DNA of 35,733 nucleotides from NCBI GenBank assembly GCA_027460585.1, contig JAPZAP010000097.1:1-35733 (forward strand). Direction: 5' to 3'. The notes under the pieces are model-generated. The model did not search any database. It was given only the letters and a program-made list of their open reading frames with translations, and had not been told where the DNA came from. Shown here in pieces: positions 3,011-20,752 of the stretch. Both the position numbers and the translations under genes were made by a program. Within the stretch, counting starts at the first letter, position 1, and each line of letters starts with the position of its first letter. This DNA comes from Candidatus Methanoperedens sp. GTDB lineage: Archaea; Halobacteriota; Methanosarcinia; Methanosarcinales; Methanoperedenaceae.

Positions 3011-4864
3011 TTACCAATGACCAACTACTGGAATATCACCTGACTGTCCATATGCAAAGTTTATGTCATCACGTTCAGCAGTATTGCTGTTCCTGAGATA
3101 GAACACACCATTGCGGTACACGCCTATCGTATCTATGCCATCTCCATTCCAGTCTCCAACAACAGGAATATCGCCAGGATTTCCATAAGCAAAGGCAAGG
3201 TCAGCGATACCTGCGCTGTTGTTGTTCCTGAGATAGAACACACCATTGCGATACACGCCGCCTGTTGTTATGTTATCTCCATTCCAATCTCCAACAACAG
3301 GAATATCGCCTGACTGTCCATATGCAAAGGCAAGGTCAGCGATACCTGCACTGTTGTTGTTCCTGAGATAGAACACACCATCGCGGTACACGCCTATCGT
3401 ATCTATGCCATCTCCATTCCAGTCTCCAACAACAGGAATATCGCCTGACTCTCCATATGCAAAGGCAAGGTCAGCATTACCAGCAGTATTGCTGTTCCTG
3501 AGATAGAATACACCATTGCGATAGATGCCAATAGTGTCTATTTCCAGGTTTGTTGTTTTGTATGCAAGCGTGAGGTAATCGATATTGCTCGCATCAAGGA
3601 CATAAGGCGAATCGCATATGCCATCGTTATCCGCATCCGCGCAGGTCTGGCTGAAGCCTGCGCCGCCCGGGTTTGCCCAGACATTGCCGCCTAGAAAGGA
3701 GCCGCCGATAATGTTGTTGCCTGGGGTTTTGGTGGTGTTCCAAGTGCTTATGGAATTACTTATTCCAATGTTGTTGGTATTGTTGAAAATGTTGTTATAA
3801 ATGTTGTTGTTGCTGGAAGAGTATAGATAGATGCCACCGTCGTTGTTTGATGCATTTATATTTTGAATATTTGAGTTAGTTGTATTCCAAAAGACCACTC
3901 CCCATATATTAGCTTTCAAGTCGAGATTTTTTAGAGTTACATTCACACATTTAATGCAGTAGAAAGTTCCTGCATTGGTAGAAGAATCATAAACAGTATT
4001 TATAGCATTTTTTACATAATATATCGGCTTGCCATCCACCGTATTACTATAGTCAATCTGGTTGTTAAAGTCTGAATCTGACCATCCGTCTAAACCAAAA
4101 TTAAATGAATTTGCCGTCATTGTGTTGTTCAAGAGCGTGTTGTCGCTGGAAGAGTACAGATATATACCGTAGCTGTTCGAATTAGCGTTATTGCTGCCGA
4201 GTGTGTTGTTGCTGGAAGAGTACAGATATATGCCGTTGTTGTTCGAGTTAGCAGTGTTTCCGCTCAGCGTGTTGTTGCTGGAAGAGCCCAGATAGATGCC
4301 GTCCCAGGGGTTCGAATTAGCGTTATTGCTGCTGAGTGTGTTGTTGCTGGAAGAGTACAGATATATGCCGTTGAGGTTGTTGGATGCATTGTTGCCGTTC
4401 AGCGTGTTGCCGTTGCTGGAATAATCCAGAGTGATGCCATTGTAGCCGTTCGAATTGGCATGGTTGCCTATTAGCGTGTTGTTGTTTGAATTTACCCTGA
4501 TACCTGCCTCTGGATAAAATGACCCACCTCCGGTCGCAGTAAATCCTTCAATTATAATTCCATCAGCAGAAAGCGTGATCGCATTTCCGTTTCCCATGGC
4601 GTCCACAACTGGCATCCCGATACCTCGCAAGGTCAACTGCTTGTTCACGTTCACGCTCTCGAAATAAGTGCCGTTTTGCACCTGAACAGTATCACTACCA
4701 TTCGCAGCATTTATCGCCCCCTGGATGCTTGAATATATACATCCGCTGGGGCAAACCGTAAGCGTGGCCGCCCCCGCCCCGCCCGCCAGCAATAACACCA
4801 GTGCCGTTATTCCAACCGCTATCCTGAGGGCATGCCCTATTTTATTAACACTATACCCTTTCAT
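3011..4864 (-). CDS. NosD2, secreted beta-helix protein with four DWNGDG modules
   Basis: A 617-aa paralogue of NosD1. The first 32 residues, MKGYSVNKIGHALRIAVGIT onward, are almost the same as in NosD1 and form a signal peptide ending GGAGA. Next come the beta-helix entry (CIYSSIQGAINAANGSDTVQ) and a ladder of SSSNNTLSGN repeats, interrupted around residues 240-330 by a less regular segment with a CIKC motif. A cap with DADNDGICD follows. Residues 443-617 are four 45-aa modules (DTIGVYRNGVFYLRN, then GDIPVVGDWNGDG), the last ending at VVGHW. It sits 26 nt after its small secreted-peptide gene. There is no membrane anchor at the C-terminus. The NosD/CASH-like fold is clear; the ligand is unknown. 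Confidence 0.85.
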   Translation of the reverse strand: MKGYSVNKIGHALRIAVGITALVLLLAGGAGAATLTVCPSGCIYSSIQGAINAANGSDTVQVQNGTYFESVNVNKQLTLRGIGMPVVDAMGNGNAITLSADGIIIEGFTATGGGSFYPEAGIRVNSNNNTLIGNHANSNGYNGITLDYSSNGNTLNGNNASNNLNGIYLYSSSNNTLSSNNANSNPWDGIYLGSSSNNTLSGNTANSNNNGIYLYSSSNNTLGSNNANSNSYGIYLYSSSDNTLLNNTMTANSFNFGLDGWSDSDFNNQIDYSNTVDGKPIYYVKNAINTVYDSSTNAGTFYCIKCVNVTLKNLDLKANIWGVVFWNTTNSNIQNINASNNDGGIYLYSSSNNNIYNNIFNNTNNIGISNSISTWNTTKTPGNNIIGGSFLGGNVWANPGGAGFSQTCADADNDGICDSPYVLDASNIDYLTLAYKTTNLEIDTIGIYRNGVFYLRNSNTAGNADLAFAYGESGDIPVVGDWNGDGIDTIGVYRDGVFYLRNNNSAGIADLAFAYGQSGDIPVVGDWNGDNITTGGVYRNGVFYLRNNNSAGIADLAFAYGNPGDIPVVGDWNGDGIDTIGVYRNGVFYLRNSNTAERDDINFAYGQSGDIPVVGHW

Positions 4865-5296: not shown

Positions 5297-8200
5297 TTAC
5301 GTTCCGTTCCAATCGCCTGTGAGAGGTGTATCGGTGCTGATTCCATATATGAATGCATTGTCTGCATTACCGGCACTGTTGCTGTTCCTGAGATAGAACG
5401 CACCAGCACGATAGATACCAACAGTATCAATGCCAGAGCCAGTCCAGTCGCCTGCGAGAGGGGTATCGCCGCTTATTCCATATATGAATGCATTGTCAGC
5501 ATTGCCTGCACTGTTGCTGTTCCTGAGATAGAACGCACCATTACGATAGACACCAACGGTATCTGTGCCATCGCCATTCCAGTCGCCAACGAGTGGAATA
5601 TCGCCGGCTACTCCATATACAAAGGCCAGATCAGCATTACCGGCACTGTTGTTGTTCCTGAGGTAGAACGTGCCATTACGATAGACACCAACGGTATCTG
5701 TGCCATCGCCATTCCAGTCGCCTGCGAGAGGTGTATCGCCTGCTACCCCATATACGAAGGCCAGGTCAGCATTGCCTGCACTGTTATTGTTCCTGAGATA
5801 GAACGCGCCATTTCGATAGACACCAACTGTATCTGTGCCATCGCCATTCCAGTCGCCTGCGAGAGGTGTATCGCTGGCTAATCCATATATGAATGCCAGG
5901 TCAGCATTCCCGGCACTGTTGCTGTTCCTGAGATCGAAAGCGCCGCTGCGGTAGATACCAACAGTATCAGTGCCAGCAACTGATGCACTTGCCGTGTTAG
6001 ACGAAATGGAATTGGCAACCATGTTCGGATAGCCAGCCGCAGGAGCAGCGTACACAGTAGTATCACCGACAACGTTGGTGGCAATCACCTGGTAGTAATA
6101 TATCGTATTGTTTCCAGTGACAGTGTCGTTATACATTACAGTTGTGCCCTTTCCCGGTCCTGTTGTGGACTGAACCGTTGCTACGGTAGTCCAGGGACCG
6201 CTGGCATTTGTGGCTCTTTGGACTATGAAGTTAATCTCATTCGTGGAGTTATCAATCCAGTTCAATGCCACACCCGTCGTAATCCGGGTAGCAGCCAGGT
6301 TAGAAGGCGCATTTGGTGTAACCAGGATCGCCATTGGGCGCATTATCATACTTTCTTCATGGCCAAGAATGTGGCAGTGCCAGACATACTCCTCGCCAAA
6401 GTTGACCAGGTGATTGGTGACATTTGCAGTCTGGTTTGCCGGATCGATATTTTCAAATGGCGTCGGGTTCTTAGCACCGATCGGCGAAGTCACATCTATG
6501 GGACGGATGTTGTTGGGAAGATCCCATGGGACATTGGGTTTAATCGGTCGCAATGCAATGATTGCGTCTTCCAGAGGGTTCACCCTTAGGGTTTCTCTCC
6601 ATCCCAACTCGTTGGGGTCGGGCGGCTTTATCGTTCCGTCCAGCTGGCTGATACGGTTGATCACCTGCACATTGAACATGTGCCAGTGCATGGGATGGGT
6701 ATCCACGCTGTTATGGTATATCCTCCATATCTGGGTGCCATCACCGAGTGTTCCGATGGGGACCGCAGCATTCGAGTTCCTGATAATCTCGGTTGGCGGA
6801 TCAAAATTGTTATAGGGAATCGCAAACCTTGCCTGGGGTATCTCGACCCCAAGGACAGTCATCAGACCGCCAAAAATTGGATCAAACCCATCATTTATTG
6901 ACTTTGGCATAAGGTTCATCGTGATATTCGCAGCTGAACCTTCAGGTGTGAAGGTAATGGAGGTGTCATTTAATCCTATGTAATTATCGATGTAACTCGT
7001 GTTAAAAGCTGCATTGTAAGCAGATTCCGGTACGATTGGCCTGCCCTGTGACTGGGCATAGGCTACTGGTAGTGCTTCTGTCAAATTGGTCATGTTGAAA
7101 GCAGGCGCAGTGCCAATAGATGCATTAACCCGGAATTGCATGATAGTCCGGGTATTTGGACCGTAACCAGGTATTGTCGATGATGCGCCTCCAATTATCG
7201 TATTATCCGGGTCGTTCGTGAAGTAGTCGTATCGTGAGTCAGCCCCGGTGACCGGGATCGGTGAATCACTGTAAAGAATCAGTGTGGAATTGTCCGGAAC
7301 TCCCGAAAAGTCCACAATGACATCTGCCCGCTCCGCTCCGGCCAAGTTGAGAGCTTTCTCCCTCACATTCAAGACCCCATTTGCACTGTTGTTGTAATCA
7401 TAGCCGATCGGCCTGTTAGGAATGGTCACAGGCGCAGGCAGGAAGCCGCCTTCAGTGCCTATCTGTATCATCGATGGACCGGTCGAGTTAGGATCCGGCA
7501 CACCTTCAGGCCTGCCGTCCAATATGGCATATGGATTCTCGGCATTACCTGTAGTTGTGTTCCAGTCAGCCGGGAATTGAGCTGCGCCCGGGACAGCAGG
7601 AACCATTGAGATTTCAGTACAGAGGCTGTGATTCGTTACTGCAGCTCCTTTGCACATAGTAGGAACGGAATAACCACTGCCTCCATTCGTTACCGTGATG
7701 TCGGTAACGGTACCGTTGGCAACGTCTATTGTTGCAGTAGCTTCAGCGTCTGAACCATCATGAGTATGCCCGGGGGCATCAAAGATGAGGACTTCAGGAC
7801 GTTCGGTATAACCTGCGCCTCCGCTTGTAACAGAGATGCCGGTAATACCACCGGTTGCATTTACCATAGCCCTGGCTGAAGCACCTTTTGCATTGTCACC
7901 GCCGCCCGATATCTTGACAAAAGGTCCTGCGGTTGAGGCGTAATACAGCTGCAGGTTGAAAGTACGGTCATTCGCCGCGTTCAGTATCCTGAACCTGTAT
8001 GCTTTTTGCCCGAGCTGGAGGTACGGATAAACATTGCCGTTGACTACCGAGGTGTCCACGAATGCTTCCGGCACAATGGACGGGTTAGGTGTCCCAGGAT
8101 TGAGCGACCCTTCCTGGGGCGCAGTGCCGCTAAGTGGGTTCGGAACCGGCCCATTGGTGGCATTTACCGGTTGATCTATCCATGGACCGTAATCCCACCT

Positions 8201-9664
8201 TCCCATAGGATTTATTGAACCACTTTGGTTCTCGGCGGGCATATAAACATGGGGGAACCAGAGATCTGATCTGCTTGAGTTCAGAGTAAAAGGCCAGGTA
8301 GGATCCTGGGCTGCAACCTTGAGGTTGTCTGGCAGGAAAGTCTTATCCTGGATAACAAGGGGAATCCCGACATCGGGGAGAACTTGCAGGTTATCAGGAT
8401 TAGCGCCCGACAGGTTGGTGCCACTGATCAAGTCCTGTTCCACCTGATCGGTCTCAAGGTAAGCCGCAGCTACGCCGGCATAAACAGTCAGGCGTGTAAG
8501 TCCGTATGCATGGTCGTGGTAGAACATCAGCCTTGCACTCTGCTGGTTGGTATAGTAGAATGTCATCGTTCCAGCGGGTTCAGTTCCTCCGTCCATGTCC
8601 GGGACATATTTCGTACTGACGCCCCTGGGATAGGATGTGTTTTCACCGGCAGGAGTCGTCCACTGGTCCTGCGTCCCGTCGCTAATCCACGGCGTGTTGC
8701 CGCCATGTAGATGGATTGTGCCGCGATTCTGCGAGTATTGCTGGCATGTGCCCATTACAACAATTCCGTTAGCATCAAGAGTACATCCGGAGGGACCATC
8801 CCCCGCTCCTACGATTGTGGTGTCCACCGGGATGAAAAGGTTGCCATCCGTGCCTGTGGCAAGGAAGTTGGTGAACTTGACACGCACCGGTTTATCCTTC
8901 TGGGCTATGATAACGGGTCCGAGATAATGAGGATTATCCACAGCATAGACCTGGTCGCCACTGGCGTTTAAAATACCGGTACCATTAATGTATTTCAGGG
9001 GAATGTGCGCACCCGGAACGTTCGTTGTAGATAACTGCACATAGCCCCGGAGTTTAGTCGCGTTCAGGTCAGAATGCATTTTTTCGGTATAGTCTACCAG
9101 CCCGATTTCGTAATAATCGGATCCGTTGTAAGTTGTAGTATCTGCAACTGCAATGGGTATATACTGCCCGATATTGTTTGCGCCGGCAGGTCCAAGACCA
9201 GGCAATGAATCGACAAATTTCCTGATACCGCCTGAAACGGTCCCGTTCGAATCGACTGCCGGAGCAGGGCTATTGGCGTAGTTTGGTATCGTGCCGAAGT
9301 AGTCAGGCGTCCCGCCCGGCGTTAACGCAGCTATCCTCATTCCGGCACCAGTTGCTGCGACAAGTGATGCTTTAGTACCAGATGCCGCAATACGAGCTGC
9401 GGACAGCCTTTGAGCGTTCGTAGTCCTTATTCTGATTAAAGGGCTGAGTGACGGCTGTGCATTTGCATATAAAGACGGGCTTTCCGTGACGGGTGCGCCG
9501 CTATATGATACTTTGTTAATAACCGCACTGGCAACGTTGCTGTTCAACGGCAATAATGAAAAGAGTATTCCGACTGCAAGCAATATGCTGATAAATCCAA
9601 TTCCGGCAAATAATGTTCTCCTGGCTATACGACTTTTTTTACCTGATGACCACCTTATTTTCAT
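5297..9664 (-). CDS. MCO1, large secreted multicopper oxidase
   Basis: A 1455-aa multicopper oxidase, expected to oxidise a substrate at a type 1 copper and reduce oxygen or another acceptor at a trinuclear copper cluster outside the cell. All four copper motifs are present: HLHGG near residue 316, HDHAYG near 381, HPMHWH near 988 and HCHILGHEESMIM near 1094. The usual axial position of the type 1 copper holds Ile, where MCO2 has Met. Two GGxGY repeats lie in a loop near residues 590-680. A fibronectin III-like domain (about 1108-1200) and five 45-aa DWNGDG modules (1233-1455) follow. The N-terminus is a basic stretch and a hydrophobic segment ending VASA. The start at 9664 is preferred over 9682 because AGAGGTCAGG precedes it and MCO2 starts alike. 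It resembles large bacterial OmpB/MofA-type oxidases from memory; the substrate is unknown. Confidence 0.9.
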   Translation of the reverse strand: MKIRWSSGKKSRIARRTLFAGIGFISILLAVGILFSLLPLNSNVASAVINKVSYSGAPVTESPSLYANAQPSLSPLIRIRTTNAQRLSAARIAASGTKASLVAATGAGMRIAALTPGGTPDYFGTIPNYANSPAPAVDSNGTVSGGIRKFVDSLPGLGPAGANNIGQYIPIAVADTTTYNGSDYYEIGLVDYTEKMHSDLNATKLRGYVQLSTTNVPGAHIPLKYINGTGILNASGDQVYAVDNPHYLGPVIIAQKDKPVRVKFTNFLATGTDGNLFIPVDTTIVGAGDGPSGCTLDANGIVVMGTCQQYSQNRGTIHLHGGNTPWISDGTQDQWTTPAGENTSYPRGVSTKYVPDMDGGTEPAGTMTFYYTNQQSARLMFYHDHAYGLTRLTVYAGVAAAYLETDQVEQDLISGTNLSGANPDNLQVLPDVGIPLVIQDKTFLPDNLKVAAQDPTWPFTLNSSRSDLWFPHVYMPAENQSGSINPMGRWDYGPWIDQPVNATNGPVPNPLSGTAPQEGSLNPGTPNPSIVPEAFVDTSVVNGNVYPYLQLGQKAYRFRILNAANDRTFNLQLYYASTAGPFVKISGGGDNAKGASARAMVNATGGITGISVTSGGAGYTERPEVLIFDAPGHTHDGSDAEATATIDVANGTVTDITVTNGGSGYSVPTMCKGAAVTNHSLCTEISMVPAVPGAAQFPADWNTTTGNAENPYAILDGRPEGVPDPNSTGPSMIQIGTEGGFLPAPVTIPNRPIGYDYNNSANGVLNVREKALNLAGAERADVIVDFSGVPDNSTLILYSDSPIPVTGADSRYDYFTNDPDNTIIGGASSTIPGYGPNTRTIMQFRVNASIGTAPAFNMTNLTEALPVAYAQSQGRPIVPESAYNAAFNTSYIDNYIGLNDTSITFTPEGSAANITMNLMPKSINDGFDPIFGGLMTVLGVEIPQARFAIPYNNFDPPTEIIRNSNAAVPIGTLGDGTQIWRIYHNSVDTHPMHWHMFNVQVINRISQLDGTIKPPDPNELGWRETLRVNPLEDAIIALRPIKPNVPWDLPNNIRPIDVTSPIGAKNPTPFENIDPANQTANVTNHLVNFGEEYVWHCHILGHEESMIMRPMAILVTPNAPSNLAATRITTGVALNWIDNSTNEINFIVQRATNASGPWTTVATVQSTTGPGKGTTVMYNDTVTGNNTIYYYQVIATNVVGDTTVYAAPAAGYPNMVANSISSNTASASVAGTDTVGIYRSGAFDLRNSNSAGNADLAFIYGLASDTPLAGDWNGDGTDTVGVYRNGAFYLRNNNSAGNADLAFVYGVAGDTPLAGDWNGDGTDTVGVYRNGTFYLRNNNSAGNADLAFVYGVAGDIPLVGDWNGDGTDTVGVYRNGAFYLRNSNSAGNADNAFIYGISGDTPLAGDWTGSGIDTVGIYRAGAFYLRNSNSAGNADNAFIYGISTDTPLTGDWNGT

Positions 9665-9984
9665 ACACCTGACCTCTTTCATTCCAAATTATAGTTAAAT
9701 AAAAACAATTCAAATTATCCTTGCATCTTTTGCGTTAAAAAAAATCATGCACGGCAAAGAACCCTAAGGGTTATTATATCGTAAAATAATTATCTTCGTG
9801 ACTATCAACACAGTACCGTATCGAATAGATAATTATACTGCAGCAGCCTGTTCTAAAATCAGGCACTTATTTACCGGATGAGCTGCATCGAATTTTCCAC
9901 TAAACCGGTACATCATTTCTTACTTTTTATCAGAAATCTTATCAATCCTCCGTATAATCGGATACAAATACCTCAAATTGGCTG
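9665..9984. other. Intergenic region upstream of MCO1
   Basis: About 320 bp without a gene. The 100 bp nearest MCO1 is AT-rich and contains TATTTAACTATAATTT on the minus strand, a possible TATA region. CCCTAAGGG (9762-9770) is a short palindrome further out. No RNA gene or mobile element was recognised. Confidence 0.4.
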
Positions 9985-10010
9985 AAAAAGGAGATGATTT
10001 CTCATCTCCT
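9985..10010 (-). terminator. Terminator overlapping the NosD3 stop codon
   Basis: On the minus strand AGGAGATGA, loop GAAA, TCATCTCCT, then TTTTT. The nine-base-pair stem is perfect and the NosD3 TGA stop codon is the end of its 5' arm. It separates NosD3 from MCO1. Confidence 0.8.
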
Positions 10011-13000
10011 CTTCCTGCCAAACAGGTAGGCCACTGAGATCAGGGCAACCGCCAGGGTAAATCCAATTCCGGGCACTTTATTTGTAGCACTCGGCGCCGG
10101 AGTAACTGTCGGTACAACCTGGGTTGCTGTTACTACACCTGTCGGCGTTTCTGTGGGAACTGCTGCTGCAACGCCTTTTATTGCGCTTATCGCGAAAGGC
10201 GAGAACTTTGCTGTCTTTGCCTCGAAATAGGTGTATGTATCGTCTTTGGTCGTTTGGGCAGTGTCAAGCTGCGTCCACTGGCTGCCATCCCATCTGAGCA
10301 TTTGCACATCGCTGCCTGCAAGGTTGTTGCTTCCGAGCCATGAGTTCGCAACCTTGAATCTTATCAGGGCTTCCTTCATTTTTTGTGTGGCAACAATGAT
10401 ATTTACGTTCTTAAATACCATTCCAGGCGGCTGGGTTTTTGCCTGTTTTGACGGGCCTTTAAGACTTTCCACTCTCAGGGCTATACTGTCTTCATTCACT
10501 TTGCCCGTAAGAGCTACCTCATACACACCGAGTTCAGGCGTTTTGAAGGTATATGTTACCGGCGTGTTTGCAACCAGGAATTTATCATAGCTTTCATATA
10601 ACGCTATGTTGTCGTAAGGCTCGGCTGTAACTATTCCGCCGCCACCAGTGCCACCGCCGCCTGAACTACCCCCACTGCTTCCTGTCCCGCCTGGGATTGG
10701 TGTCGGAGTTGGGGTTGGAGTTGGGGTTGAGCCGGCTGTTCCAAGTAGCGCAATCGTGCCGAAGTTGCTCACATTGGCGATTATGTAATTACCGGCTGGA
10801 TTACTCGTGATTATTGGCAGGATCTTCCATGTCCTGGAGACGTTATCGTACCAACCGACCACAAGGGAGCCTTCTGAAACGCCTGCGGCCAGGAGATCGT
10901 CATCTGTATAATTGATCCGTACCATTATAGGCGCCGAGACATTGGCTCCTTCAGGCCCAATAGTCAGGTTCTTGCCAACAAATGACAGGTTTGCAGCGGT
11001 AGCCGCGTTCTGGGCAGATGGGCTTAAACTATCCAGCGGAGTCGTGGTTATTGAAGTCAGGACACCTCCTGATGCATTCGATGCTACAGTTCCAGCAGGC
11101 ACTGTAATTGTTATATTTACATCTGGCAGTGTTATTATTATGGGTGTTGTGACCGTTCCATTCGTCGTATTGATATAACCGGATAGGGAAGTTCCCAGTG
11201 TAGTGAGCAACGGCAGATAATCTCCTCCTACTGATATGCCGCCAGAGGAATTGTATGGAGCCGGGCTATAAACCAGACCATACCCGGTATAATTTCCAGG
11301 GAAATCAGACCAGACGTTTCCTCCAATATAAGGTCCACCTACTATGTTGGTTCCAAGAGTTCTTGTGCTGTTCCAGAAGTTGTTCCCATTGTCAAAAGCA
11401 TTGTTGGTGTTGTTGAAGTAGTTGTTGAAGATAGTGTTGTTGTCTGAAGATGTAAGGAATGTTCCATTGGCTGAACCTGTTATATTGCAATAGGAAATGA
11501 TATTGAAATCAGATGAGTCAAGGTAGATTCCGTCATCGGTATTATTTGATATTATATTGTCACTTGTTGAGATTGCTGTTACCGACAGGTCTGTGCCGAA
11601 GGATCTGTGACTTCCGATTGAATAGCCCGCTATGTATTCCAGGTTTTCCGGCATCGCATACGCGCCGCTGAACATATCATAACTGTAACTGGAAAACTCC
11701 ATACTCTTAAAATTCCATTCCATTGTTCCATCTGGATACAGCACCGCCTGGAACCAGACAGGATTCGTAACAGAATTATTATCAACCAGCGTTGATCCAT
11801 TCCACTCGACAACTATTTTATTGCCGAAGTTGAATACGCCGAGATAATTATTTCCACTGCTGGTTTCCGGGGCAGTTGTTAAATCATCATTGCTTGCAAA
11901 TATCGCATCAACAGTACCGATGTGATTATTATTAGCGTGCGTTCCATAATCAGAACACAAAGCGCAAGTCTCTCCAGTCTCCAGAAGCTCTATCAAGCCG
12001 TTTGTATTCACTGAAAGGTTTGTTATGCTCCTTCCCCTGAACGGGAAGGCGAAAGGCAATTTGTATGTAAAGCTGTCATCATCAGCCTGCATGATATAGT
12101 TCCCGTAGTCGGTTATGCTCGCCCCTGAGCCTGATGTCCTGGCTGTTGAAGGGTTTACATCAACCCACCGGAACGACGTTTCCGGAACGGTAACAGATGC
12201 TCCTATGTTGTTGAAGCTCGAAGAGATAAAGATTATTCCATTGACGTTACCATTTACAGTATTCCCGGTCAGAGTATTGCTAAAGGAATAGTAAAAGTAA
12301 ATTCCAGCGTCTGTATTATTATTTGCTACGTTGTTAGTCAACGTATTGGAGCTGGAAGTGCTCAGGTAGATTCCATCGTAGTTTGAGCTTGCGTTGTTAT
12401 CTGCCAGGATATTTTCATCTGCAGAATTGAGGTAGATTCCATAAACACTATTACTTATAGTATTTCCAATCACTTTTACATCATAGATACTCGTACCATT
12501 GTTGTCAAGAAGTATTCCAGCGTCGTTCGATGCATCACTGATTATATTATTCTTTATAGTAACATTGTATATGTTGTAATTTGCATACAGATAGATGCCA
12601 TCATTATACGGGGTGGAAGATGATATCGTGTTACCTTCAATGGTTATATTGTGTATATCCACATAAAAATCATCAATTGAAATACCATTATGATAATTTA
12701 TATTTGTAATGGTATTTCCACGATATATATCTCCTATATCTCCTGACACTGAATACGGTTCAACATACATCCCATAGTCACTGAGTTTAATCGTGTTGTT
12801 TATTACTGTATTATTGTTGGAGGCATCAAGCCAGATTCCAGTATCGATGTTCGAAATGAGAATGTTGTTTGTTACTGTATTGTAGTTGCTGGAGGATTCC
12901 AGGTAGATTCCTTCGATGTTCGAAGTGACAGTGTTGTTTGTCAGGGAGTTATTGCTGGAAAATTGCAAATCTATCCCTATAGTGTTTGAGTTGGCAATGT

Positions 13001-13607
13001 TGTTTGCCAGGGCATTGTTGCTGGAATTAAATAATTGTATTCCAGTATCTGTGTTCGAGTTCGCAGTATTGCCTGTTAATTTATTGTTGCTGGAAGAGTC
13101 CAGAAGGATTCCATAGTCGATATTCGAGTTCGCAGTGTTATTCGTTATAGTATTTTTATTGGAGTTTTCAAGATGTATTCCAACATTGTTCGGGCTTACT
13201 GAATTATCAACGATGTTGTTTTTTACGGTGTTATTGGAAGATTTGAGGTAGATACCATTATCTGCATTTGTTATTCTAAATCCATCCAGTGTGATCCCAT
13301 CTGCAGAAAGTATAATCCCATCGGAGCCTCCCCCATTCACTACAGGGATGCCGCCTCCATTATCAACACCACGCAATGTCAGCGGTATGTTAACATCAAC
13401 ATTTTCTGCATACGGGCCACTGTAAACTAATATCGTGTCCCCATTATTCGCCGCATCGATCGCAGTCTGGATCGTTGTATAATTCGCAGAACCGTCACCA
13501 TTCACTGTCAACGTCGCCGCACTCGCGCCGCCAGCCAACATGAGAAATGCTGACAGAAAAATTGCGAAGAATGAAGAATTATAGTTGACCATGTTTTTTA
13601 CTACCAT
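10002..13607 (-). CDS. NosD3, PGF-CTERM beta-helix surface protein
   Basis: A 1201-aa surface protein. A signal peptide (ending GGASA) leads into NYTTIQTAIDAANNGDTILV and NosD-like beta-helix repeats to about residue 470. An inserted domain of about 200 residues (around 480-690; SFTYKLPFAFPFRGRSITNL, then NPVWFQAVLYPDGTMEWNF) resembles nidogen-like beta domains. The helix pattern then returns briefly. Later parts are a beta-rich segment (VNITITVPAGTV), a Thr-Pro and Gly-Ser linker, a PGF-pre-PGF-like domain (PPGMVFKNVNI, FKVANSWLGSNNLAGSDVQM, KFSPFAISAIKG), a Thr/Pro stalk and a tail of PGIGF, a hydrophobic stretch and GRKRR. That tail matches the archaeosortase (PGF-CTERM) plan with PGIGF in place of PGFG. 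The gene starts 6 nt after the upstream stop. Confidence 0.88.
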   Translation of the reverse strand: MVVKNMVNYNSSFFAIFLSAFLMLAGGASAATLTVNGDGSANYTTIQTAIDAANNGDTILVYSGPYAENVDVNIPLTLRGVDNGGGIPVVNGGGSDGIILSADGITLDGFRITNADNGIYLKSSNNTVKNNIVDNSVSPNNVGIHLENSNKNTITNNTANSNIDYGILLDSSSNNKLTGNTANSNTDTGIQLFNSSNNALANNIANSNTIGIDLQFSSNNSLTNNTVTSNIEGIYLESSSNYNTVTNNILISNIDTGIWLDASNNNTVINNTIKLSDYGMYVEPYSVSGDIGDIYRGNTITNINYHNGISIDDFYVDIHNITIEGNTISSSTPYNDGIYLYANYNIYNVTIKNNIISDASNDAGILLDNNGTSIYDVKVIGNTISNSVYGIYLNSADENILADNNASSNYDGIYLSTSSSNTLTNNVANNNTDAGIYFYYSFSNTLTGNTVNGNVNGIIFISSSFNNIGASVTVPETSFRWVDVNPSTARTSGSGASITDYGNYIMQADDDSFTYKLPFAFPFRGRSITNLSVNTNGLIELLETGETCALCSDYGTHANNNHIGTVDAIFASNDDLTTAPETSSGNNYLGVFNFGNKIVVEWNGSTLVDNNSVTNPVWFQAVLYPDGTMEWNFKSMEFSSYSYDMFSGAYAMPENLEYIAGYSIGSHRSFGTDLSVTAISTSDNIISNNTDDGIYLDSSDFNIISYCNITGSANGTFLTSSDNNTIFNNYFNNTNNAFDNGNNFWNSTRTLGTNIVGGPYIGGNVWSDFPGNYTGYGLVYSPAPYNSSGGISVGGDYLPLLTTLGTSLSGYINTTNGTVTTPIIITLPDVNITITVPAGTVASNASGGVLTSITTTPLDSLSPSAQNAATAANLSFVGKNLTIGPEGANVSAPIMVRINYTDDDLLAAGVSEGSLVVGWYDNVSRTWKILPIITSNPAGNYIIANVSNFGTIALLGTAGSTPTPTPTPTPIPGGTGSSGGSSGGGGTGGGGIVTAEPYDNIALYESYDKFLVANTPVTYTFKTPELGVYEVALTGKVNEDSIALRVESLKGPSKQAKTQPPGMVFKNVNIIVATQKMKEALIRFKVANSWLGSNNLAGSDVQMLRWDGSQWTQLDTAQTTKDDTYTYFEAKTAKFSPFAISAIKGVAAAVPTETPTGVVTATQVVPTVTPAPSATNKVPGIGFTLAVALISVAYLFGRKRR

Positions 13608-13613
13608 TTGCGT

Positions 13614-14078
13614 TCACCTCTTCCTGAGTTCGCTCACGGAAGGTTTGGCGTAAGACCTGCCCGGCCTTTCCTTAGCTGCTGTCTGCACACGCGGAGCTGT
13701 TATGCTTTTACGAACGGCTATGACCATTGTTCCTGATAATTTTTTCTGGATTTTTGAATTGAGAGCGTGTGTCCTGTTCCCGCTTATCTGAGCTACTGAT
13801 TTATGCACGGGGAGAGCCGTTCCAACCCTCGCGCCTGATACTTTTTTTGTGAGTTCCGCATGATTCGTAGCTATCACATTGGAAGTCTGGGCCTGCACCG
13901 GTGTTTTGGCCGCGCTGATGGATGATGTATCGCTGCCCGCACTGGCAACATTGCCATTAAACGGCAATACTATAAACAGTATTCCGATTGCGAGCATTAT
14001 GCCGATAAATCCGATGCCCGCAAAGCATGTTCTCTTTGCTATACCCCTTTTCCTATTAGATAACGACTTTAATTTCAT
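13614..14078 (-). CDS. Orphan MCO-type leader protein
   Basis: A 154-aa basic protein whose first 50 residues match the export leaders of MCO1 and MCO2 (KRTCFAGIGFIGIMLAIGIL, then NVASA). The rest is low-complexity, rich in Lys, Arg, Ala and Ser, with no copper ligands, no Cys after residue 18 and no recognised domain. The start has AGAGGTTAG 4 nt before it, as in the MCO genes. Its TGA stop overlaps the AGGTGA ribosome site of NosD3, so the two are translationally coupled. It may be a remnant of a third MCO gene that kept only leader and linker, or a small basic partner of the surface complex. The family is unrecognised beyond the leader. Confidence 0.7.
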   Translation of the reverse strand: MKLKSLSNRKRGIAKRTCFAGIGFIGIMLAIGILFIVLPFNGNVASAGSDTSSISAAKTPVQAQTSNVIATNHAELTKKVSGARVGTALPVHKSVAQISGNRTHALNSKIQKKLSGTMVIAVRKSITAPRVQTAAKERPGRSYAKPSVSELRKR

Positions 14079-14170: not shown

Positions 14171-17100
14171 CTAGTTTGTAGTCACTGACCTGTTAATTCC
14201 TGGCGAATTGGTGGTTATGTTCTGGAAGCCAATTGCCAGAGGGTTCCCTGCAGTGTAATCCGTAACGTCGCCGATTACGTTAGTGGCATTCACCATGTAG
14301 TAGTACAGAGTCCTTCTTGCGGTCGTAGTGTCGACGTAACTCACAATCGTGCCCCTTCCCGGCCCTGTTGTAGACGGTAATGATGCTATTGTTGTCCATG
14401 GTCCTGAGGCGTTTGCGGCTCTCTGGACTGTCCACTGGACTTCGTTCGTGGAGTTGTCTGTCCATGTCAGAGTCGCCAACCCTGTTGGAACATTTGTGGC
14501 TACCAGGTTATTAGGCACTCTGGGTGTCACTGAATATAACATCGGACGCATCATTATGTTCTCTTCATGACCCAGCAGGTGGCAGTGCCAGACGTACTCG
14601 AATCCATAGTTAATCAGATGGTTGTAAACCGTAACCGGTTCACCGGATGGGTCTACCATTATCGAGTTAACTGTTCCGAACTGTCCGGTCGTGCCAATCG
14701 GCATCGTCACGTCATTAGGACGAATACTGTTGGGGAGGTCGAATGAGACATTGATACGTTCCGGCCTGAACGCTACTATTATATCTTCCAGCGGGTTTGT
14801 GCGGATCGTGTCTTTCCAGCCGAGTTCGTTTGGATCCGGCGCCTTGACCATTCCGTCCCAACCAACCCTGTTGATAAGCTGCACATCGAAATCGTGGAAG
14901 TGCATAGCATGGGTATCAACACCATTGTGCGTAATCTTCCATATCTGGGTTCCGTCTGTTAGCGAACCTATGGGTTGCACGCTTGTGTTGTCCCCGTAAA
15001 GCTCGGTCGGCGGATCGATATCCGAATATGGGATTGTCGTCTGTATCATCCAATTGACCAATGGCAGTTCGACTCCGATAAGGGAATTCATGCGTCCAAA
15101 GTCAGGATCAAACAGTTCATGGATGGCTTTGGGCTGCAGATCCATTGTCAGGTTAAGCGTCGCTATAGCAGTAGCTCCTGAGCCTGTGGCAGCAGTGATT
15201 GTAACGATTGGAGCAGAGGTATAACCAGAACCTCCATTCGTTAATGTGATACTGCTGATGGCACCAGTAACTAGAGCTATCGCAGTAGCGCCTGTGCCGC
15301 CGCCACCCGTGATTGTGACAGGAGGTGCTGTAATATAACCTGTGCCCGCGTTTGTCAGGGTGAGGGTCATTGGCGATAACGTTGCCGCAACAGTCATTCC
15401 CCTGCCGCCGCCACCTGTGACTGTGACAGTCGGCACTGAGGTATAACCAGAGCCAGGATTCGTCAGCGTGATGGCGAGAACTGGTGGCGTAATCGTTGCC
15501 GTAGCAGTTGCGCCTGTGCCGCCGCCGCCTGTGATGGTCACTCTAGGAGCAACGGTATAGCCCGATCCCGGGTTAGTTACCGCGATGGTGAGAGCCAGTG
15601 CTGATAACGTTGCCGTAGCCCTGGCGCCTGTGCCTCTGCCTGTACTAGTGATGGTCACCGCAGGAGCAGTTGTATAACCTGATCCCGGGGCAGTAACCGT
15701 GATGGCAGTAATTCGGCCTCCAGTTATTGTAGCCCTGGCAGTAGCTCTTACTCCTCCAGCAGTCGTTGGTGCTGCGATCGTTACCGTGGTTGTTGCTGTT
15801 GTATAACCGGTACCTGCGGCATTAACCGCGATTCTGGCAACAGTACCGCTTAAGGATGCTAAGGCAGTAGCTGTTACTCCTCCGGCAGTCGTCGGTGCTG
15901 CGATTGCTACTGTAGGCGGTGAGGTATATCCTCTGCCTGCATTCGTAACCCTTATGCTGGCAACAGTGCCTCCCAACCCTGCAGTTGCTGTAGCTCTTAT
16001 TCCGCCAACTGTCGCAGGGGCTGAGATTGTAACGATTGGTGTCCCGGTATATCCTCTGCCTGCATTCGTAATCCTGAGGCTGGCAACTGAGAATGTTGCC
16101 GTAGCTGTAGCTGTTGTTCCGCCAGGAGTCGTCGGAGCCCCGATTGTTACATTGGGTGAACTGGTATAACCGGTTCCATTGGCGGTAAGCCTGAGACCGG
16201 AAAGAATACCGGCCACGTTTGCTATAGCAGTAGCGCCTGTGCCGCCGCCACCCGAAATGCTGACAACAGGCAAGGCGTAATTAGAGCCACCATTCGTTAG
16301 AATGATGTTCCTGACCGGCTGAGTAGAGGTAGCCGGGAGGAAAGTCATGTTATAGGACTGTATCCTTGCGTACGCATCATTTGGATATGTCGCATTGAAT
16401 GGTACATCATAACCTGCCTGGGGCACTATGGGCTTGGGCTGGGCCTGGGCATAAGCTACCGGCAATGCTGCATTCAATTTGGTCAGGTTGAACCCTGAGG
16501 CATTGCCTGACATATTGCCAAGAGCTCCGTTAACCCGTATTTGCATAACTGTCCTTGTATTGGGACCGTAGCCCGGTATGGTAGTCGGTGCGCCGCCTGT
16601 CAATGTCTGATCCGGATCATTTGTATAATAATCGTTTCGTACATCAAACGCTGGCATCGGTGCTGGTGCGTCGTTATACAGAATCAATGTTGAACCGTTC
16701 GGAACTGTGGAGAAGTCAGCTATGACATCCGCGCGCTCTGCCGGTGCAATATACAGTGATTTTTCATAGACATTAGTGATGGTTATGCTCCTCGTGTTCT
16801 TTTCATATCCAACCGGCCTGGGAGGGATAACAACCGGGGCAGGGATGAACCCGCCTTCTGTGCCGATCTGGACCCAGCTTGGACCCATCACTGCGGGATT
16901 TGGAATACCTCCGACCCTGTTGTCCATGATGTCTGGAGCCATGCCTGGCGCTGCCGAACCTATCAGCCAGTCTGCGGGCCAAGCCGGGTCACCGTAGGAT
17001 CCAGTTGCCGGAACCATTGAGATTTCAGTACATAGGCTCGAATTTATGGGTGCGGTTGCATTGTTGCACACTGTAGGAACCTGGTAACCGCTGCCATTGC

Positions 17101-20100
17101 TGGTAAGCGTAATAGCAGTTACCGTACCTGATACAGGGTCCACTATTGCCGTAGCCGCTGAAGCAGGTACGAAGGTTACTGCGAATGTTGCGTTTGCAGT
17201 TGCGCCTGTACCTGAACCGTTTAGATCCGTTATGGTAACACCAGGTGCGGATATGTAACCTGTACCGCCATTGGTAACGCCGATAGCTGTTATATTTATT
17301 GATCTTATACTGGCATTCGCGCCTGAACCTGTGCCGGTGCTATCCATGATAGTGACCGGGTTGGCAGGCATATAACCGCTGCCTCCGGCGATAAGCCTGA
17401 GACCTGTGACATTTATTGTCGCGTTAGCAGTAGTGCCTGAACCGCCGCCACCCGATATGTTTACAAGAGGTGCGGATGAGTAATTAGAACCACCATTTGT
17501 TAGCGTGATGGTTGTAATGCTTAATGTTGCACTGGCATTCGCGCCTGAACCTGTGCCGCCGTTGCTATCATTGATGGTAACAACCGGTGCTGACGTGTAG
17601 CCCGAACCGCTATTGGTAAGCACAATTCCTGTCAGATTGACAGTACCGTTAGCAGTAGCGCCTGAACCTATGCCGCTATCAGTGATAGTGACATTAAGAG
17701 GCGAGGGATAATTCAAACCGCCAGACAATAGCGTGATTCCTGTAACATTAATCGTTGCAGTAGCAATAGCGCCTGAGCCTGTGCCGCTATCCGTGATAGT
17801 GACGTTGGGTGCTGATGTGTAGCCCGAACCGCCGCTTGTAAGCGTGATCGCGGAAAGACTTAATGTAGCGTTAGCAGTAGCGCCTGAACCTGTGCCGGCA
17901 TTATCCGTGATGTTTACAACAGGCGCAGTATAATTACTGCCTCCATTGTCAACCACGATTGAATAAACGCTAAGATTGCCGACGGCTCCATATAATACTA
18001 CATGTGCAAGAGCTCCTGATCCAGTGCCGTTATTGCTGTCATTGATAGTGACAATCGTCAGCGAGCTATAATTACTGCCTCCATTTGTCACATTAACGCC
18101 GCTTACGACAGTTGTTGCAATGGCAGAAGCGTTTGTTCCACCGCCGCCTGTTATGTTGACGACGACCGGATAGGTATAATTTGAGCCCGCGTTCTTCAGC
18201 GTGATGTTGTTCACATCACCGGTTGTTATAGCTGCTGCACCCGTTCCGCCAACGAAGTTGACACTGGGAGCAGTATAATTTGAACCATTCGTAAGAAGCG
18301 TGACGCTGGTGACAGAACCTGTTGCACTGGCAGTCATGTTTGTTCCACCGCCGCCTGATATGTTAACAACAGGAGATGTATAATTTGAGCCCGGGTTCGT
18401 CAGCGTTATGCTGTTAAAGCCAAGTGTTGCATTCGCAGAAGCCCCAGTTCCACTACCACCCGTGAAGGTGATACTGGGAAGAGAGGTATAGCCTGAACCG
18501 TTCGTAAGAAGTGTTACGCTGCTAACAGGACCAGTTGTAGTGGCACTAGCGTTTGATCCGCCTGTGAATGTTACAACAGGAACTGTATAACCTGAACCGT
18601 TTGTGAGAAGCGTCATATTGGTGACTGCGCCCGTTGCAGTGGCAGTAGCATTAATTCCGCCAGCAGACGTTGGAGCCGCGATGTTAACTACCGGATTGGA
18701 ATAGTTTGCACCTGGTGTCAAAACGTTAATGGCAGTAACAATACCTGTTCTTGTACTTGTGTTGCCTGCATGTCCCGGAGCATCAAAGATGGTTACATTA
18801 GGAGGATTTGTAGCGCTATAGCCTGCGCCCCCGCTTGAAACCATGACACTTGTAATACTACCTGTTGCATTTACCGCTACAGTAGCCGATGCACCTGAAC
18901 CAGGAGCGCCGCCGGAGATCACAGCAAAAGGACCTGCGGTCGAAGCATAATATAATTGAAGATTCAGCATGCGCTCATTGGCTGCATTAAGTATCCTGAA
19001 CCTGTATGCTTTTTGTCCGAGCGGGAGGTATGGATAGGCATTACCGTTGACTATAGGCGTGTCTACATAACCTTCCGGCACAGCGGATAGGTAAGGGTAA
19101 GGTATCCCTGGGTTGACCGGGCCCTGCTGGGGCGTGGTACCATACAGTGGGTTCGGCAACGGCGGGAATGTCAAACTCGTTTGCGGAGGGAAGAACCATG
19201 GACCATAGTCCCACCTGCCATTGGGGTTTGCCCCTGAAATGTCATATGGATTCTGGTTCGGGATGTAAACATGGGGGAACCATAGATCGTTTCTGGAAGT
19301 ATTCAGCGGAAAAGGCCATGTTGGGTCCTCGAGTGTCAGTTGTGCCATATTGGGCAGGAAGGCCTTGTCCTGGATGACAAGAGGTATCTGGGTGGCCGGG
19401 ATTGTTCCGGCACTGACAGTCATTGTAGTTCCCGGAATAATTCCGCCGTTTACCAGAGCGCCTTCCACAGTATCACTCACAAGGAGGGCTGAAGCTTCGC
19501 CACCATAAACATTGAGACGGGTAATCCCGTAGGCATGGTCATGGTAGAAGTATAGCCTGGCGCTCTGCTGGTTTGTATAATAAAAAGTCAGAGACCCATC
19601 TCCGGGGTTGTTCGTTGCTCCCGCCGTCCCTGCTGCAACTGTGGCGCCGGTTGTTGGGCTAAACCACATGTCAGGTACGTAACCCACAGCTACGCCTTTG
19701 GGATATGAAGTGTTTTCCCCGGCAGGGGTCGTCCACTGGTGTTCTGTCCCGTCGCTGATCCACGGCGTGCTTCCGCCGTGAAGATGTATCGTGGCGCGGT
19801 TCTGTGAGAAATTGCCGCTAATCGTGTTGGGAGATGAATAGTTGATCCTATTGTTGGTTGCATTAATGGTGAATGGTCCTGCTCCCATGATTGTTGGGTC
19901 CACAGGCAGGAAGAGATTGCCGCCCGTGCCCGCGGGGAGGTAGTTGGTGAACTTGACGCGTGACGGTCTGTCCTTCGAGGCTAAGATCACGGGTCCCAAA
20001 TAATGAGGTTTATCCACAGCATAGACCTGCCCTCCTGTGGCATTGTGAATTGCAGTGCCATTCATATAAGTCAGAGGAACGTGATTACCTTTCACGACAT

Positions 20101-20752
20101 TTGTCTCTATCTGCACATAGCCCCTCAGTAAGGTAGCATTCAGGTCAGTGTGCATTTTTTCGGTATATTCTACCACCGCGATTTCGTAATAATCAGAACC
20201 GTTGTAAGTTATAGTGTCCGCTTTTGCAACGGGTATGTATTGCCCGATATTGTTTGCAGAAGCATTCCCAAGACCTGGCAGCGAATCAACGAATTTCCTG
20301 ATACCGCCTGTGATGTTCCCGTTAGAATCGACGGATGGGAGCGGACTGTTGGCGTAATTGGCTGTGGGGCCGAAGTAATCCGGCATCTGGCCGGGGGTCC
20401 CTGGTACGAGAGTTGATATGGATTTTATGGAAGCAGATGACTTGATGCGAGATGCCTCAATAAGAGCAGTTCTAATGCGAACGGCATCCATCATCCGCTG
20501 TGTGTTGTTATAACTTCTCATCATACTGGGTGGAGCATTTGGATCCTTGCTCTGGCTGTACAGTGAAGTGAGGGTTACACCGTTGAATGGTGCATTGCCA
20601 GAGCCGCTTACCGCACTGGCAACATTGTAATTATATGGCAATACTGAAAATAGTATTGCGAGTGCAAGCATTATACCTATAAAACCAATGCCTGCATAAA
20701 AAGTTCTCTTGGCTCTACGTTTATTTTTGGATGTATTCCACTCTAATTTCAT
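14171..20752 (-). CDS. MCO2, giant multicopper oxidase with GxGY repeat arrays
   Basis: A 2193-aa secreted multicopper oxidase, paralogous to MCO1 over leader, copper domains and the fibronectin III-like end. Copper ligands are complete: HLHGG near residue 322, HDHAYG near 402, HAMHFH near 1947 and HCHLLGHEENIMM near 2054, with Met at the axial type 1 position. Two loops carry repeat arrays of about 30-35 residues each with core TNGGSGYTSAPVVTITGGGG: 16 units at about 614-1224 and 10 units at about 1479-1867. The first array is rich in Asn (SNYT, NATL), giving many N-glycosylation sequons; the second is rich in Ala and Arg. The start at 20752 is chosen over 20836 because GAGAGGTTAAG precedes it and MCO1 aligns there. 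No C-terminal anchor or DWNGDG modules. The substrate is unknown; surface electron transfer or metal oxidation is inference. Confidence 0.9.
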   Translation of the reverse strand: MKLEWNTSKNKRRAKRTFYAGIGFIGIMLALAILFSVLPYNYNVASAVSGSGNAPFNGVTLTSLYSQSKDPNAPPSMMRSYNNTQRMMDAVRIRTALIEASRIKSSASIKSISTLVPGTPGQMPDYFGPTANYANSPLPSVDSNGNITGGIRKFVDSLPGLGNASANNIGQYIPVAKADTITYNGSDYYEIAVVEYTEKMHTDLNATLLRGYVQIETNVVKGNHVPLTYMNGTAIHNATGGQVYAVDKPHYLGPVILASKDRPSRVKFTNYLPAGTGGNLFLPVDPTIMGAGPFTINATNNRINYSSPNTISGNFSQNRATIHLHGGSTPWISDGTEHQWTTPAGENTSYPKGVAVGYVPDMWFSPTTGATVAAGTAGATNNPGDGSLTFYYTNQQSARLYFYHDHAYGITRLNVYGGEASALLVSDTVEGALVNGGIIPGTTMTVSAGTIPATQIPLVIQDKAFLPNMAQLTLEDPTWPFPLNTSRNDLWFPHVYIPNQNPYDISGANPNGRWDYGPWFFPPQTSLTFPPLPNPLYGTTPQQGPVNPGIPYPYLSAVPEGYVDTPIVNGNAYPYLPLGQKAYRFRILNAANERMLNLQLYYASTAGPFAVISGGAPGSGASATVAVNATGSITSVMVSSGGAGYSATNPPNVTIFDAPGHAGNTSTRTGIVTAINVLTPGANYSNPVVNIAAPTSAGGINATATATGAVTNMTLLTNGSGYTVPVVTFTGGSNASATTTGPVSSVTLLTNGSGYTSLPSITFTGGSGTGASANATLGFNSITLTNPGSNYTSPVVNISGGGGTNMTASATGSVTSVTLLTNGSNYTAPSVNFVGGTGAAAITTGDVNNITLKNAGSNYTYPVVVNITGGGGTNASAIATTVVSGVNVTNGGSNYSSLTIVTINDSNNGTGSGALAHVVLYGAVGNLSVYSIVVDNGGSNYTAPVVNITDNAGTGSGATANATLSLSAITLTSGGSGYTSAPNVTITDSGTGSGAIATATINVTGITLLSGGLNYPSPLNVTITDSGIGSGATANGTVNLTGIVLTNSGSGYTSAPVVTINDSNGGTGSGANASATLSITTITLTNGGSNYSSAPLVNISGGGGSGTTANATINVTGLRLIAGGSGYMPANPVTIMDSTGTGSGANASIRSINITAIGVTNGGTGYISAPGVTITDLNGSGTGATANATFAVTFVPASAATAIVDPVSGTVTAITLTSNGSGYQVPTVCNNATAPINSSLCTEISMVPATGSYGDPAWPADWLIGSAAPGMAPDIMDNRVGGIPNPAVMGPSWVQIGTEGGFIPAPVVIPPRPVGYEKNTRSITITNVYEKSLYIAPAERADVIADFSTVPNGSTLILYNDAPAPMPAFDVRNDYYTNDPDQTLTGGAPTTIPGYGPNTRTVMQIRVNGALGNMSGNASGFNLTKLNAALPVAYAQAQPKPIVPQAGYDVPFNATYPNDAYARIQSYNMTFLPATSTQPVRNIILTNGGSNYALPVVSISGGGGTGATAIANVAGILSGLRLTANGTGYTSSPNVTIGAPTTPGGTTATATATFSVASLRITNAGRGYTGTPIVTISAPATVGGIRATATAGLGGTVASIRVTNAGRGYTSPPTVAIAAPTTAGGVTATALASLSGTVARIAVNAAGTGYTTATTTVTIAAPTTAGGVRATARATITGGRITAITVTAPGSGYTTAPAVTITSTGRGTGARATATLSALALTIAVTNPGSGYTVAPRVTITGGGGTGATATATITPPVLAITLTNPGSGYTSVPTVTVTGGGGRGMTVAATLSPMTLTLTNAGTGYITAPPVTITGGGGTGATAIALVTGAISSITLTNGGSGYTSAPIVTITAATGSGATAIATLNLTMDLQPKAIHELFDPDFGRMNSLIGVELPLVNWMIQTTIPYSDIDPPTELYGDNTSVQPIGSLTDGTQIWKITHNGVDTHAMHFHDFDVQLINRVGWDGMVKAPDPNELGWKDTIRTNPLEDIIVAFRPERINVSFDLPNSIRPNDVTMPIGTTGQFGTVNSIMVDPSGEPVTVYNHLINYGFEYVWHCHLLGHEENIMMRPMLYSVTPRVPNNLVATNVPTGLATLTWTDNSTNEVQWTVQRAANASGPWTTIASLPSTTGPGRGTIVSYVDTTTARRTLYYYMVNATNVIGDVTDYTAGNPLAIGFQNITTNSPGINRSVTTN
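15150..16320 (-). repeat. Second GxGY repeat array inside MCO2
   Basis: Ten protein-level repeats (counted by the motif GxGYT or GxNY) occupy the place where MCO1 has only a short link between ITFTPEGSAANI and TMNLMPKSI. Units read like TNAGRGYTSPPTVAIAAPTT or TNPGSGYTSVPTVTVTGGGG, with few Asn sequons. Confidence 0.85.
17075..18915 (-). repeat. First GxGY repeat array inside MCO2
   Basis: Sixteen repeats (motifs GGAGYS, PGSNYT, NGSGYT, GGSNYS and similar) lie at the spot where MCO1 carries only two such units. The flanks (STAGPF before, PTVCNN after) align with MCO1, so the array has grown within a loop and the copper domains on either side remain intact. Confidence 0.85.

What the first reader, a model, noticed from the sequence alone, without database searches (positions are those of the whole stretch)
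14171..20752. Giant multicopper oxidase with two repeat arrays grown inside loops
MCO2 keeps every copper ligand yet carries 26 GxGY/GxNY units, 16 in one loop and 10 in another. At the same two places MCO1 has two units and none. The sequence outside the loops aligns well. So the arrays grew without breaking the enzyme, and they may form beta-rich arms or a surface lattice that presents a copper site.
Basis: partly seen in the sequence, partly recalled or inferred. Interest (0 to 1): 0.8.

Follow-up and report, generated by a model that had tools for sequence, protein, structure and literature searches.

The report
Copper oxidase with paired-repeat arms
A probable methane-oxidising archaeon encodes a very large copper enzyme that carries 26 small repeats at two surface positions without losing its metal-binding residues; relatives in distant archaea and bacteria carry the same repeats, nearly always in even numbers, which suggests an add-on building block made of repeat pairs.

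Summary
MCO2 (14171-20752, minus strand, 2193 aa from its ATG) has 26 GxGY/GxNY units, 16 in one insertion and 10 in another, and keeps its copper ligands; MCO1 has two and none. It is not peculiar to MCO2: in 45 family members from archaea and bacteria (MCO1 and MCO2 included) units occur at three positions only, ahead of cupredoxin domain 1, in a domain 2 loop and in the domain 2-3 linker. By hand 57 of 58 arrays are even-numbered, by an automatic counter 50 of 58, so the building block is probably a pair of units, about 75 aa. The unit matches phage virion families. AlphaFold2 gives an intact CotA fold plus a confident beta array for a Neobacillus relative; for MCO2, domain 2 appears to close around array 1, which is itself modelled poorly. 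New here: array 1 holds 43 N-glycosylation sequons (17.6 expected by shuffling), array 2 only 2 and no acidic residue. Best reading: an exported copper oxidase of CotA type with modular, partly glycan-bearing arms that hold or space it in the envelope. Substrate and arm function are inferred.

The parts
14171..20752 (-). MCO2 gene, 2193 aa from ATG at 20752 (open frame continues to GTG at 20836, 2221 aa)
   Evidence: Cu-oxidase_2 PF07731 34.1 bits
17021..18856 (-). Array 1: 16 GxGY/GxNY units (residues 661-1272) in a domain 2 loop that starts after the strand matching CotA residues up to 267; 43 N-glycosylation sequons in residues 661-1262
15149..16315 (-). Array 2: 10 units (residues 1508-1896) in the domain 2-3 linker; no D/E, 15 K/R, 2 sequons
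19772..19786 (-). Copper motif HLHGG (residues 351-355)
19532..19543 (-). Copper motif HDHA (residues 432-435)
14894..14911 (-). Copper motif HAMHFH (residues 1976-1981)
14552..14587 (-). Copper motif HCHLLGHEENIM (residues 2084-2095)
5297..9682 (-). MCO1 paralogue, 1461 aa, ending in five 45-aa repeats
7610..7846 (-). The single pair of GxGY units in MCO1, same site as array 1 of MCO2

Best explanation
MCO2 is an exported three-cupredoxin multicopper oxidase of the CotA / phenoxazinone-synthase type whose copper ligands are kept. A portable beta module has been inserted in tandem at two surface positions: eight modules in a domain 2 loop and five in the domain 2-3 linker. One module is a pair of about 38-aa GxGY units, each with about three short strands. 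The modules probably work as arms that space, hold or shield the enzyme in the cell envelope and its glycan layer. Array 1 has become rich in N-glycosylation sequons and array 2 is a cationic, acid-free arm. Shown by sequence: ligands, insertion sites, recurrence in the family, even numbers, sequon density. Predicted by AlphaFold2: intact copper fold with arrays in a relative, and domain 2 closing around array 1 in MCO2. Inferred: export (from a hydrophobic N-terminal segment), arm function, glycosylation, and the reaction (oxidation of a metal ion or small reductant with reduction of oxygen, as in known multicopper oxidases).
For: Copper ligands invariant or at least 90% conserved over 44 aligned members. 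Units at three positions only, in 40 of 45 screened members (16 of the 45 were found through the unit itself or lie beside such a hit, so the share is biased; of the 29 found by oxidase queries, 25 have units). 57 of 58 arrays even by hand, over at least 29 copy-number changes on the 44-member core tree; automatic count 50 of 58. Viral arrays from 80 fetched contigs: 57 of 70 non-redundant even. Four of the 50 listed matches of the Neobacillus model to predicted viral proteins span 74-81 columns at 0.8-1.8 A, the size of two units, while all listed matches over 100 columns have rmsd of 7.1 A or more. CotA fold with arrays present; domain 2 of MCO2 against CotA 178-333 with a model range 7-964 that spans array 1. 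43 sequons in array 1 against 17.6 (s.d. 3.4) on shuffling, spread over many positions of the unit; two STT3 matches in the genome. Of 27 open frames found with the unit profile in genomes, 25 are these oxidases.
Against: Array 1 of MCO2 is modelled at block pLDDT 26-71, so its fold is taken from relatives. The hand count included degenerate units that I looked for; one clear odd array exists (L048, 9 units), 13 of 70 viral arrays are odd by the automatic counter (7 of these are single units), and lag analysis shows no alternation of two unit types. Other arrays of the same genus (L046 both, L061, two of three in L048) have no sequon, and bacterial arrays are not enriched, so glycan carriage is not general. 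Sequons are not proof of glycosylation. The Foldseek search of the MCO2 fragment reached only E 0.1. No solved structure, expression or activity data.
Confidence: 0.6

Rival explanations
1. The arrays are binding modules (for glycan, cell surface or mineral) that bring the oxidase to its substrate, as adhesive domains do, and array number tunes avidity.
For: The same unit matches phage virion, baseplate and tail-fibre families, where adhesion is common; array 2 is strongly cationic; OmpB of Geobacter, a surface oxidase needed for Fe(III) oxide reduction, is said to be possibly involved in attaching to iron oxides (PMC5566968, section 13 passage).
Against: In the ten units aligned, the invariant residues are I, T, G, Y, P, V, G and A, which look structural; arrays differ in charge and sequons even within one protein.
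Confidence: 0.25
2. The expansion is near neutral: a loop tolerant of insertion gains and loses repeat pairs by recombination, with folding stability as the only constraint.
For: Copy number varies from 0 to 18 per site with at least 29 changes on the tree, and 5 of 45 members have no unit at any site; a same-genus genome carries an array-free member in the slot where another has 9-2-4 units.
Against: Even numbers and third-position bias show constraint on protein; sequons in array 1 exceed shuffles by 7.5 s.d. while array 2 of the same gene has 2.
Confidence: 0.2
3. The arrays gate the type 1 copper pocket or join molecules into a surface lattice.
For: Two of the three sites lie in domain 2 and the domain 2-3 linker, on recollection not far from the CotA substrate pocket.
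Against: Nothing tested here shows contact with the pocket or self-association; array-free members keep the core.
Confidence: 0.08
4. Assembly or gene-calling artefact.
For: The genome is a draft of 153 contigs, 84% complete, and tandem repeats are assembly traps.
Against: Units are 55% and 59% identical on average as DNA, the frame is open, and independent assemblies show the same architecture.
Confidence: 0.02

Closest known systems
CotA laccase / spore coat protein A (1GSK) and phenoxazinone synthase PhsA
   Same: Three-cupredoxin fold, copper motifs, among the closest solved sequences and folds; NCBIfam PhsA is the best of three NCBIfam matches, 90.7 bits.
   Different: Far below the PhsA cut-off of 950 bits; CotA (513 residues) has no arrays; MCO2 is about four times longer.
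OmpB (Geobacter sulfurreducens) / MofA (Leptothrix) surface multicopper oxidases
   Same: Outer-surface or extracellular multicopper oxidases of metal-cycling organisms (PMC5566968, passages); Geobacterales members of the present family carry the units.
   Different: No OmpB or MofA sequence was at hand, so homology was not tested; the fibronectin domain reported for OmpB was not found by Pfam in the C-terminal regions of MCO1 and MCO2; no CxxCH motif in any of 55 window frames of 100 aa or more, whereas the ompB cluster has a cytochrome gene.
GxGY-type repeats in phage virion structural, neck, baseplate and tail-fibre protein families (PHROG 701, 19630, 460, 708 and others)
   Same: Profile matches to 15 families, E 3.4e-105 to 3.8e-9 for the whole repetitive protein; mostly even-numbered in viral contigs; two-unit-sized rigid matches among predicted viral structures.
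   Different: In phages the repeats are in virion parts, here in an enzyme. Direct tblastn links are weak: none at 1e-5; with another array at E <= 10, 374 phage records, mostly cyanophages, the 20 listed having E 0.03 to 6.

Membership tests
CotA/PhsA-like three-domain multicopper oxidase | Four copper-binding motifs (HxH, HxH, HxxHxH, HCHxxxH then M) | tested here: met
   MCO1 and MCO2; ligands invariant or at least 90% conserved in 44 aligned members
CotA/PhsA-like three-domain multicopper oxidase | Three cupredoxin domains in CotA arrangement | tested here: met
CotA/PhsA-like three-domain multicopper oxidase | NCBIfam PhsA equivalog cut-off (for PhsA proper) | tested here: not met
   90.7 bits against a cut-off of 950: a relative, not PhsA
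CotA/PhsA-like three-domain multicopper oxidase | Oxidase activity with bound copper | not testable with these tools
   needs the protein
OmpB/MofA surface multicopper oxidases | Sequence homology to OmpB or MofA | not tested
OmpB/MofA surface multicopper oxidases | C-terminal fibronectin type III domain | tested here: inconclusive
   No Pfam match in the C-terminal regions of MCO1 (137 aa) and MCO2 (132 aa) up to E 10, though the stretch looks Fn3-like by eye
GxGY virion repeat (PHROGs) | Profile match of the repeat | tested here: met
   15 PHROG families, best 3.4e-105
GxGY virion repeat (PHROGs) | Two-unit periodicity | tested here: met
   Same automatic counter: 57 of 70 viral arrays and 50 of 58 oxidase arrays even; this is my own criterion, not a published one

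The most novel reading that the evidence does not exclude
A two-unit beta module shared with phage virion proteins is a dedicated, loop-insertable accessory of one surface copper-oxidase family across archaea and bacteria. It can as a rule only be added in pairs, and in Methanoperedens MCO2 it has been turned into a roughly 600-residue N-glycan-bearing arm plus a cationic arm that place a copper oxidase within the S-layer or matrix of a methane-oxidising, metal-cycling archaeon.
Probability: 0.25. Interest if true: 0.78.

Novelty: new variant of a known kind. Interest (0 to 1): 0.58.

Why it matters
It shows an enzyme whose size is set by how many copies of one external module it accepts at fixed surface points, with a parity rule that makes the folded unit of a repeat found in phage virions and in these oxidases directly testable. 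It also names a concrete candidate for a surface copper oxidase in methane-oxidising archaea. Pfam gave no family for the unit (only a 10.4-bit chance match), and eight paper searches in the held library listed no paper whose title or abstract start describes it in multicopper oxidases; that covers open-licence papers only, and one search listed 12 of 27.

Tried and rejected
Profile search of the unit against PDB sequences gave only TAL-effector repeats, matched over about 12 residues, rejected as chance. Literature search for the string GSGYT (11 papers, none on this repeat by title) and for cyanophage repeats (none). Lag analysis for alternation of two unit types: none found, so pairs are not A-B sequence types. 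Foldseek of the MCO2 fragment against PDB: best E 0.1, so judged mainly through the second aligner. Cytochrome genes as a sign of an electron-transfer cluster: no CxxCH motif in the open frames of 110 aa or more kept for nine loci, of which L063, L064 and L067 repeat L047, L046 and L048, nor in 55 window frames.

Rows dropped: L057, L063, L064, L066, L067 and L068 duplicate L037, L047, L046, L053, L048 and L036 and were counted once; further oxidase-like frames in L059, L060 (about 1280 aa) and L093 (778 aa) were left out of the 45; L042 is cut at a contig end and its linker array was left out of the hand count; L053 is also cut and is not in the 44-row alignment or the tree. Shorter, more distant oxidases found were not counted; two of them, L020 and L021, were screened and have no unit. 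L044/L051, L059/L060, L045/L049 and L080/L081 are near relatives kept as separate rows. The hand set and the automatic set of 58 arrays are not exactly the same arrays. No support values were read off the tree.

Full report
Where it is. The window lies in a 2.47 Mb draft archaeal genome of 153 contigs, 84% complete. Two genomes placed in the same genus have contigs of the same lengths as named records that came up with the same oxidase: G045 contig 20, 51712 bases, as PQAS01000020.1 (Candidatus Methanoperedenaceae archaeon FeB_1), and G054 contig 20, 90299 bases, as JAPMTR010000066.1 (Candidatus Methanoperedens sp. Ig 1). I therefore take the organism to be a Methanoperedens. That members couple anaerobic methane oxidation to Fe(III) or Mn(IV) reduction is stated in PMC8280799 (passages read); it was not tested for this genome.

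MCO2 has 16 and 10 GxGY/GxNY motifs in two insertions, and MCO1 has two and none. The unit is about 38 residues with the majority pattern ITLTNxGSGYTSAPxVTITxGGGGxGATAxATLS in ten aligned units. Copies are on average 55% (array 1) and 59% (array 2) identical as DNA, and differences are concentrated at codon position 3 (0.60 against 0.38 and 0.36 in array 1; 0.59 against 0.35 and 0.30 in array 2), so the arrays look old and selected as protein. In the held genome the unit profile matches only MCO1 and MCO2 (27 of 27 matches).

The enzyme. Pfam finds Cu-oxidase_2 (34.1 bits, cut-off 20.4); the nearest solved sequences are CotA-type laccases and bilirubin oxidases, and the nearest NCBIfam model is PhsA, far below its cut-off. 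The copper ligands are invariant or at least 90% conserved in 44 aligned members. A PDB alignment of an array-free member, read against the MCO1/MCO2 alignment, puts array 1 just after CotA residue 267, inside domain 2, and array 2 between CotA 320 and 405, that is between domains 2 and 3.

The family. Searches brought in relatives from Methanoperedens, Methanomassiliicoccales and another Thermoplasmata archaeon, Neobacillus and Bacillus, Actinobacteria, Coriobacteriia, Acidobacteria and Geobacterales. Reading the units in 45 proteins, MCO1 and MCO2 included, shows a third position, ahead of domain 1: in the Neobacillus model the CotA match begins at model residue 98, after that array. Sixteen of the 45 were found through the unit profile or beside such a hit; of the 29 found by oxidase queries, 25 have units. 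Hand counts per site: N-terminal site 21 arrays (fifteen of 2, two of 4, two of 8, one of 9, one of 10); domain 2 site 16 arrays (ten of 2, five of 4, MCO2 with 16); linker site 21 arrays (three of 2, eight of 4, seven of 6, one each of 8, 10 and 18). Thus 57 of 58 are even; of the 30 arrays with more than two units, 29 are. The odd one, L048 with 9, holds two nearly identical neighbouring 33-residue units. Hand counting included degenerate units that I searched for; the automatic counter, which misses half-units at array ends and degenerate copies, gives 50 of 58 even. On the 44-member core tree the numbers changed at least 10, 8 and 11 times at the three sites, presence or absence included. 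Five of 45 have no unit. MCO2, with 26, has the highest total; L087 of Geobacterales has 20, 18 of them in one array.

Why pairs. Lag analysis in 12 arrays shows no A-B alternation, so the even numbers seem to reflect folding and not a duplicated two-unit sequence. The same counter applied to complete open frames in 80 viral contigs fetched with the unit gives 57 even of 70 non-redundant arrays, 37 of them exactly two; of the 13 odd ones 7 are single units. Against predicted viral proteins, 4 of the 50 listed matches of the Neobacillus model span 74-81 columns at 0.8 to 1.8 A, one of them a putative tail fibre, while all listed matches over 100 columns have rmsd of 7.1 A or more. The list gives no query range, so that these short matches are the array is my inference; they are the size of two units.

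Where else the unit lives. In genomes searched with the unit profile, 27 open frames carry it; 25 are this oxidase family, one is a 1481-aa protein with surface-domain matches below their cut-offs (L082), and one is a T4 gp8-like baseplate protein (L094). At E <= 1e-6 the unit is found in 1 of 299 genomes of the Neobacillus order (the seed), 4 of 294 of the archaeal phylum (the window's own included) and 13 of 141 of the Geobacter order. The profile was made from MCO2, and the eight genomes were chosen for their oxidase, so the share of oxidases is biased upward. Among viruses it matches 15 PHROG families of virion, connector, baseplate and tail proteins (one of unknown function) and, weakly, 374 phage records, mostly cyanophages.

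Glycan and charge. Array 1 of MCO2 has 43 N-x-S/T sequons in 602 residues; shuffles give 17.6 with s.d. 3.4. Array 2 of the same protein has 2 sequons in 389 residues, 15 K/R and no D/E. The two FeB_1 arrays are also enriched (15 against 6.5; 12 against 5.0), L037 array 1 mildly (5 against 2.0), whereas both arrays of L046, the one of L061, that of the other archaeon L058 and two of three in L048 have none, and five bacterial arrays are at or below expectation. The cores of MCO1 and MCO2 are enriched too (27 against 11.9; 22 against 11.0). The genome has two STT3 matches, 96 and 48.8 bits against a cut-off of 24.5, so N-glycosylation is possible; it is not shown.

Function. Known surface oxidases offer a guide. 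[quoted passage not shown] the original papers were not read). Membership of our family in that group could not be tested. Multicopper oxidases normally reduce oxygen, which sits oddly in an anaerobe; this is unresolved. I commit to a surface copper oxidase with modular arms for spacing, holding and shielding, at 0.6 for the whole statement, and lower for any given substrate.

Noticed in passing
13614-14078 (-): A 154-aa frame directly downstream of MCO2 starts with the same leader and membrane segment as MCO1 and MCO2 (52% identical to MCO2 over 67 residues) but then is basic and low in complexity, with no Pfam match; perhaps a remnant of a third oxidase gene.
   Followed up: partly
301-2433, 3011-4864 and 5300-5980 (-): Two beta-helix proteins (the first NosD-like by Pfam) and MCO1 share a C-terminal 45-aa repeat (period 135; GDxPLxGDWNGDGxDTVGIYR); a further match to it lies in contig C16 of the genome. 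Pfam gives no confident family for the MCO1 stretch.
   Followed up: partly
10002-13607 (-): A 1201-aa NosD/beta-helix protein with a PGF-pre-PGF domain sits between MCO1 and MCO2 on the same strand.
   Followed up: no
L062 and L048: Two genomes of the genus have an oxidase in the same slot between the same neighbour genes, one array-free (0-0-0), one with 9-2-4 units; the tree puts them apart, which suggests replacement of one gene by another.
   Followed up: partly
BFVD rows 1 and 4: Two viral records (Satyrvirus, Hyperionvirus) encode copper oxidases of 1102 and 863 aa that match the array-bearing model.
   Followed up: no
L087:4960-11484 (+): A genome of the Geobacter order has a 2175-aa oxidase of this family with 18 units in the linker site, a second giant array apart from MCO2 on the tree.
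   Followed up: partly
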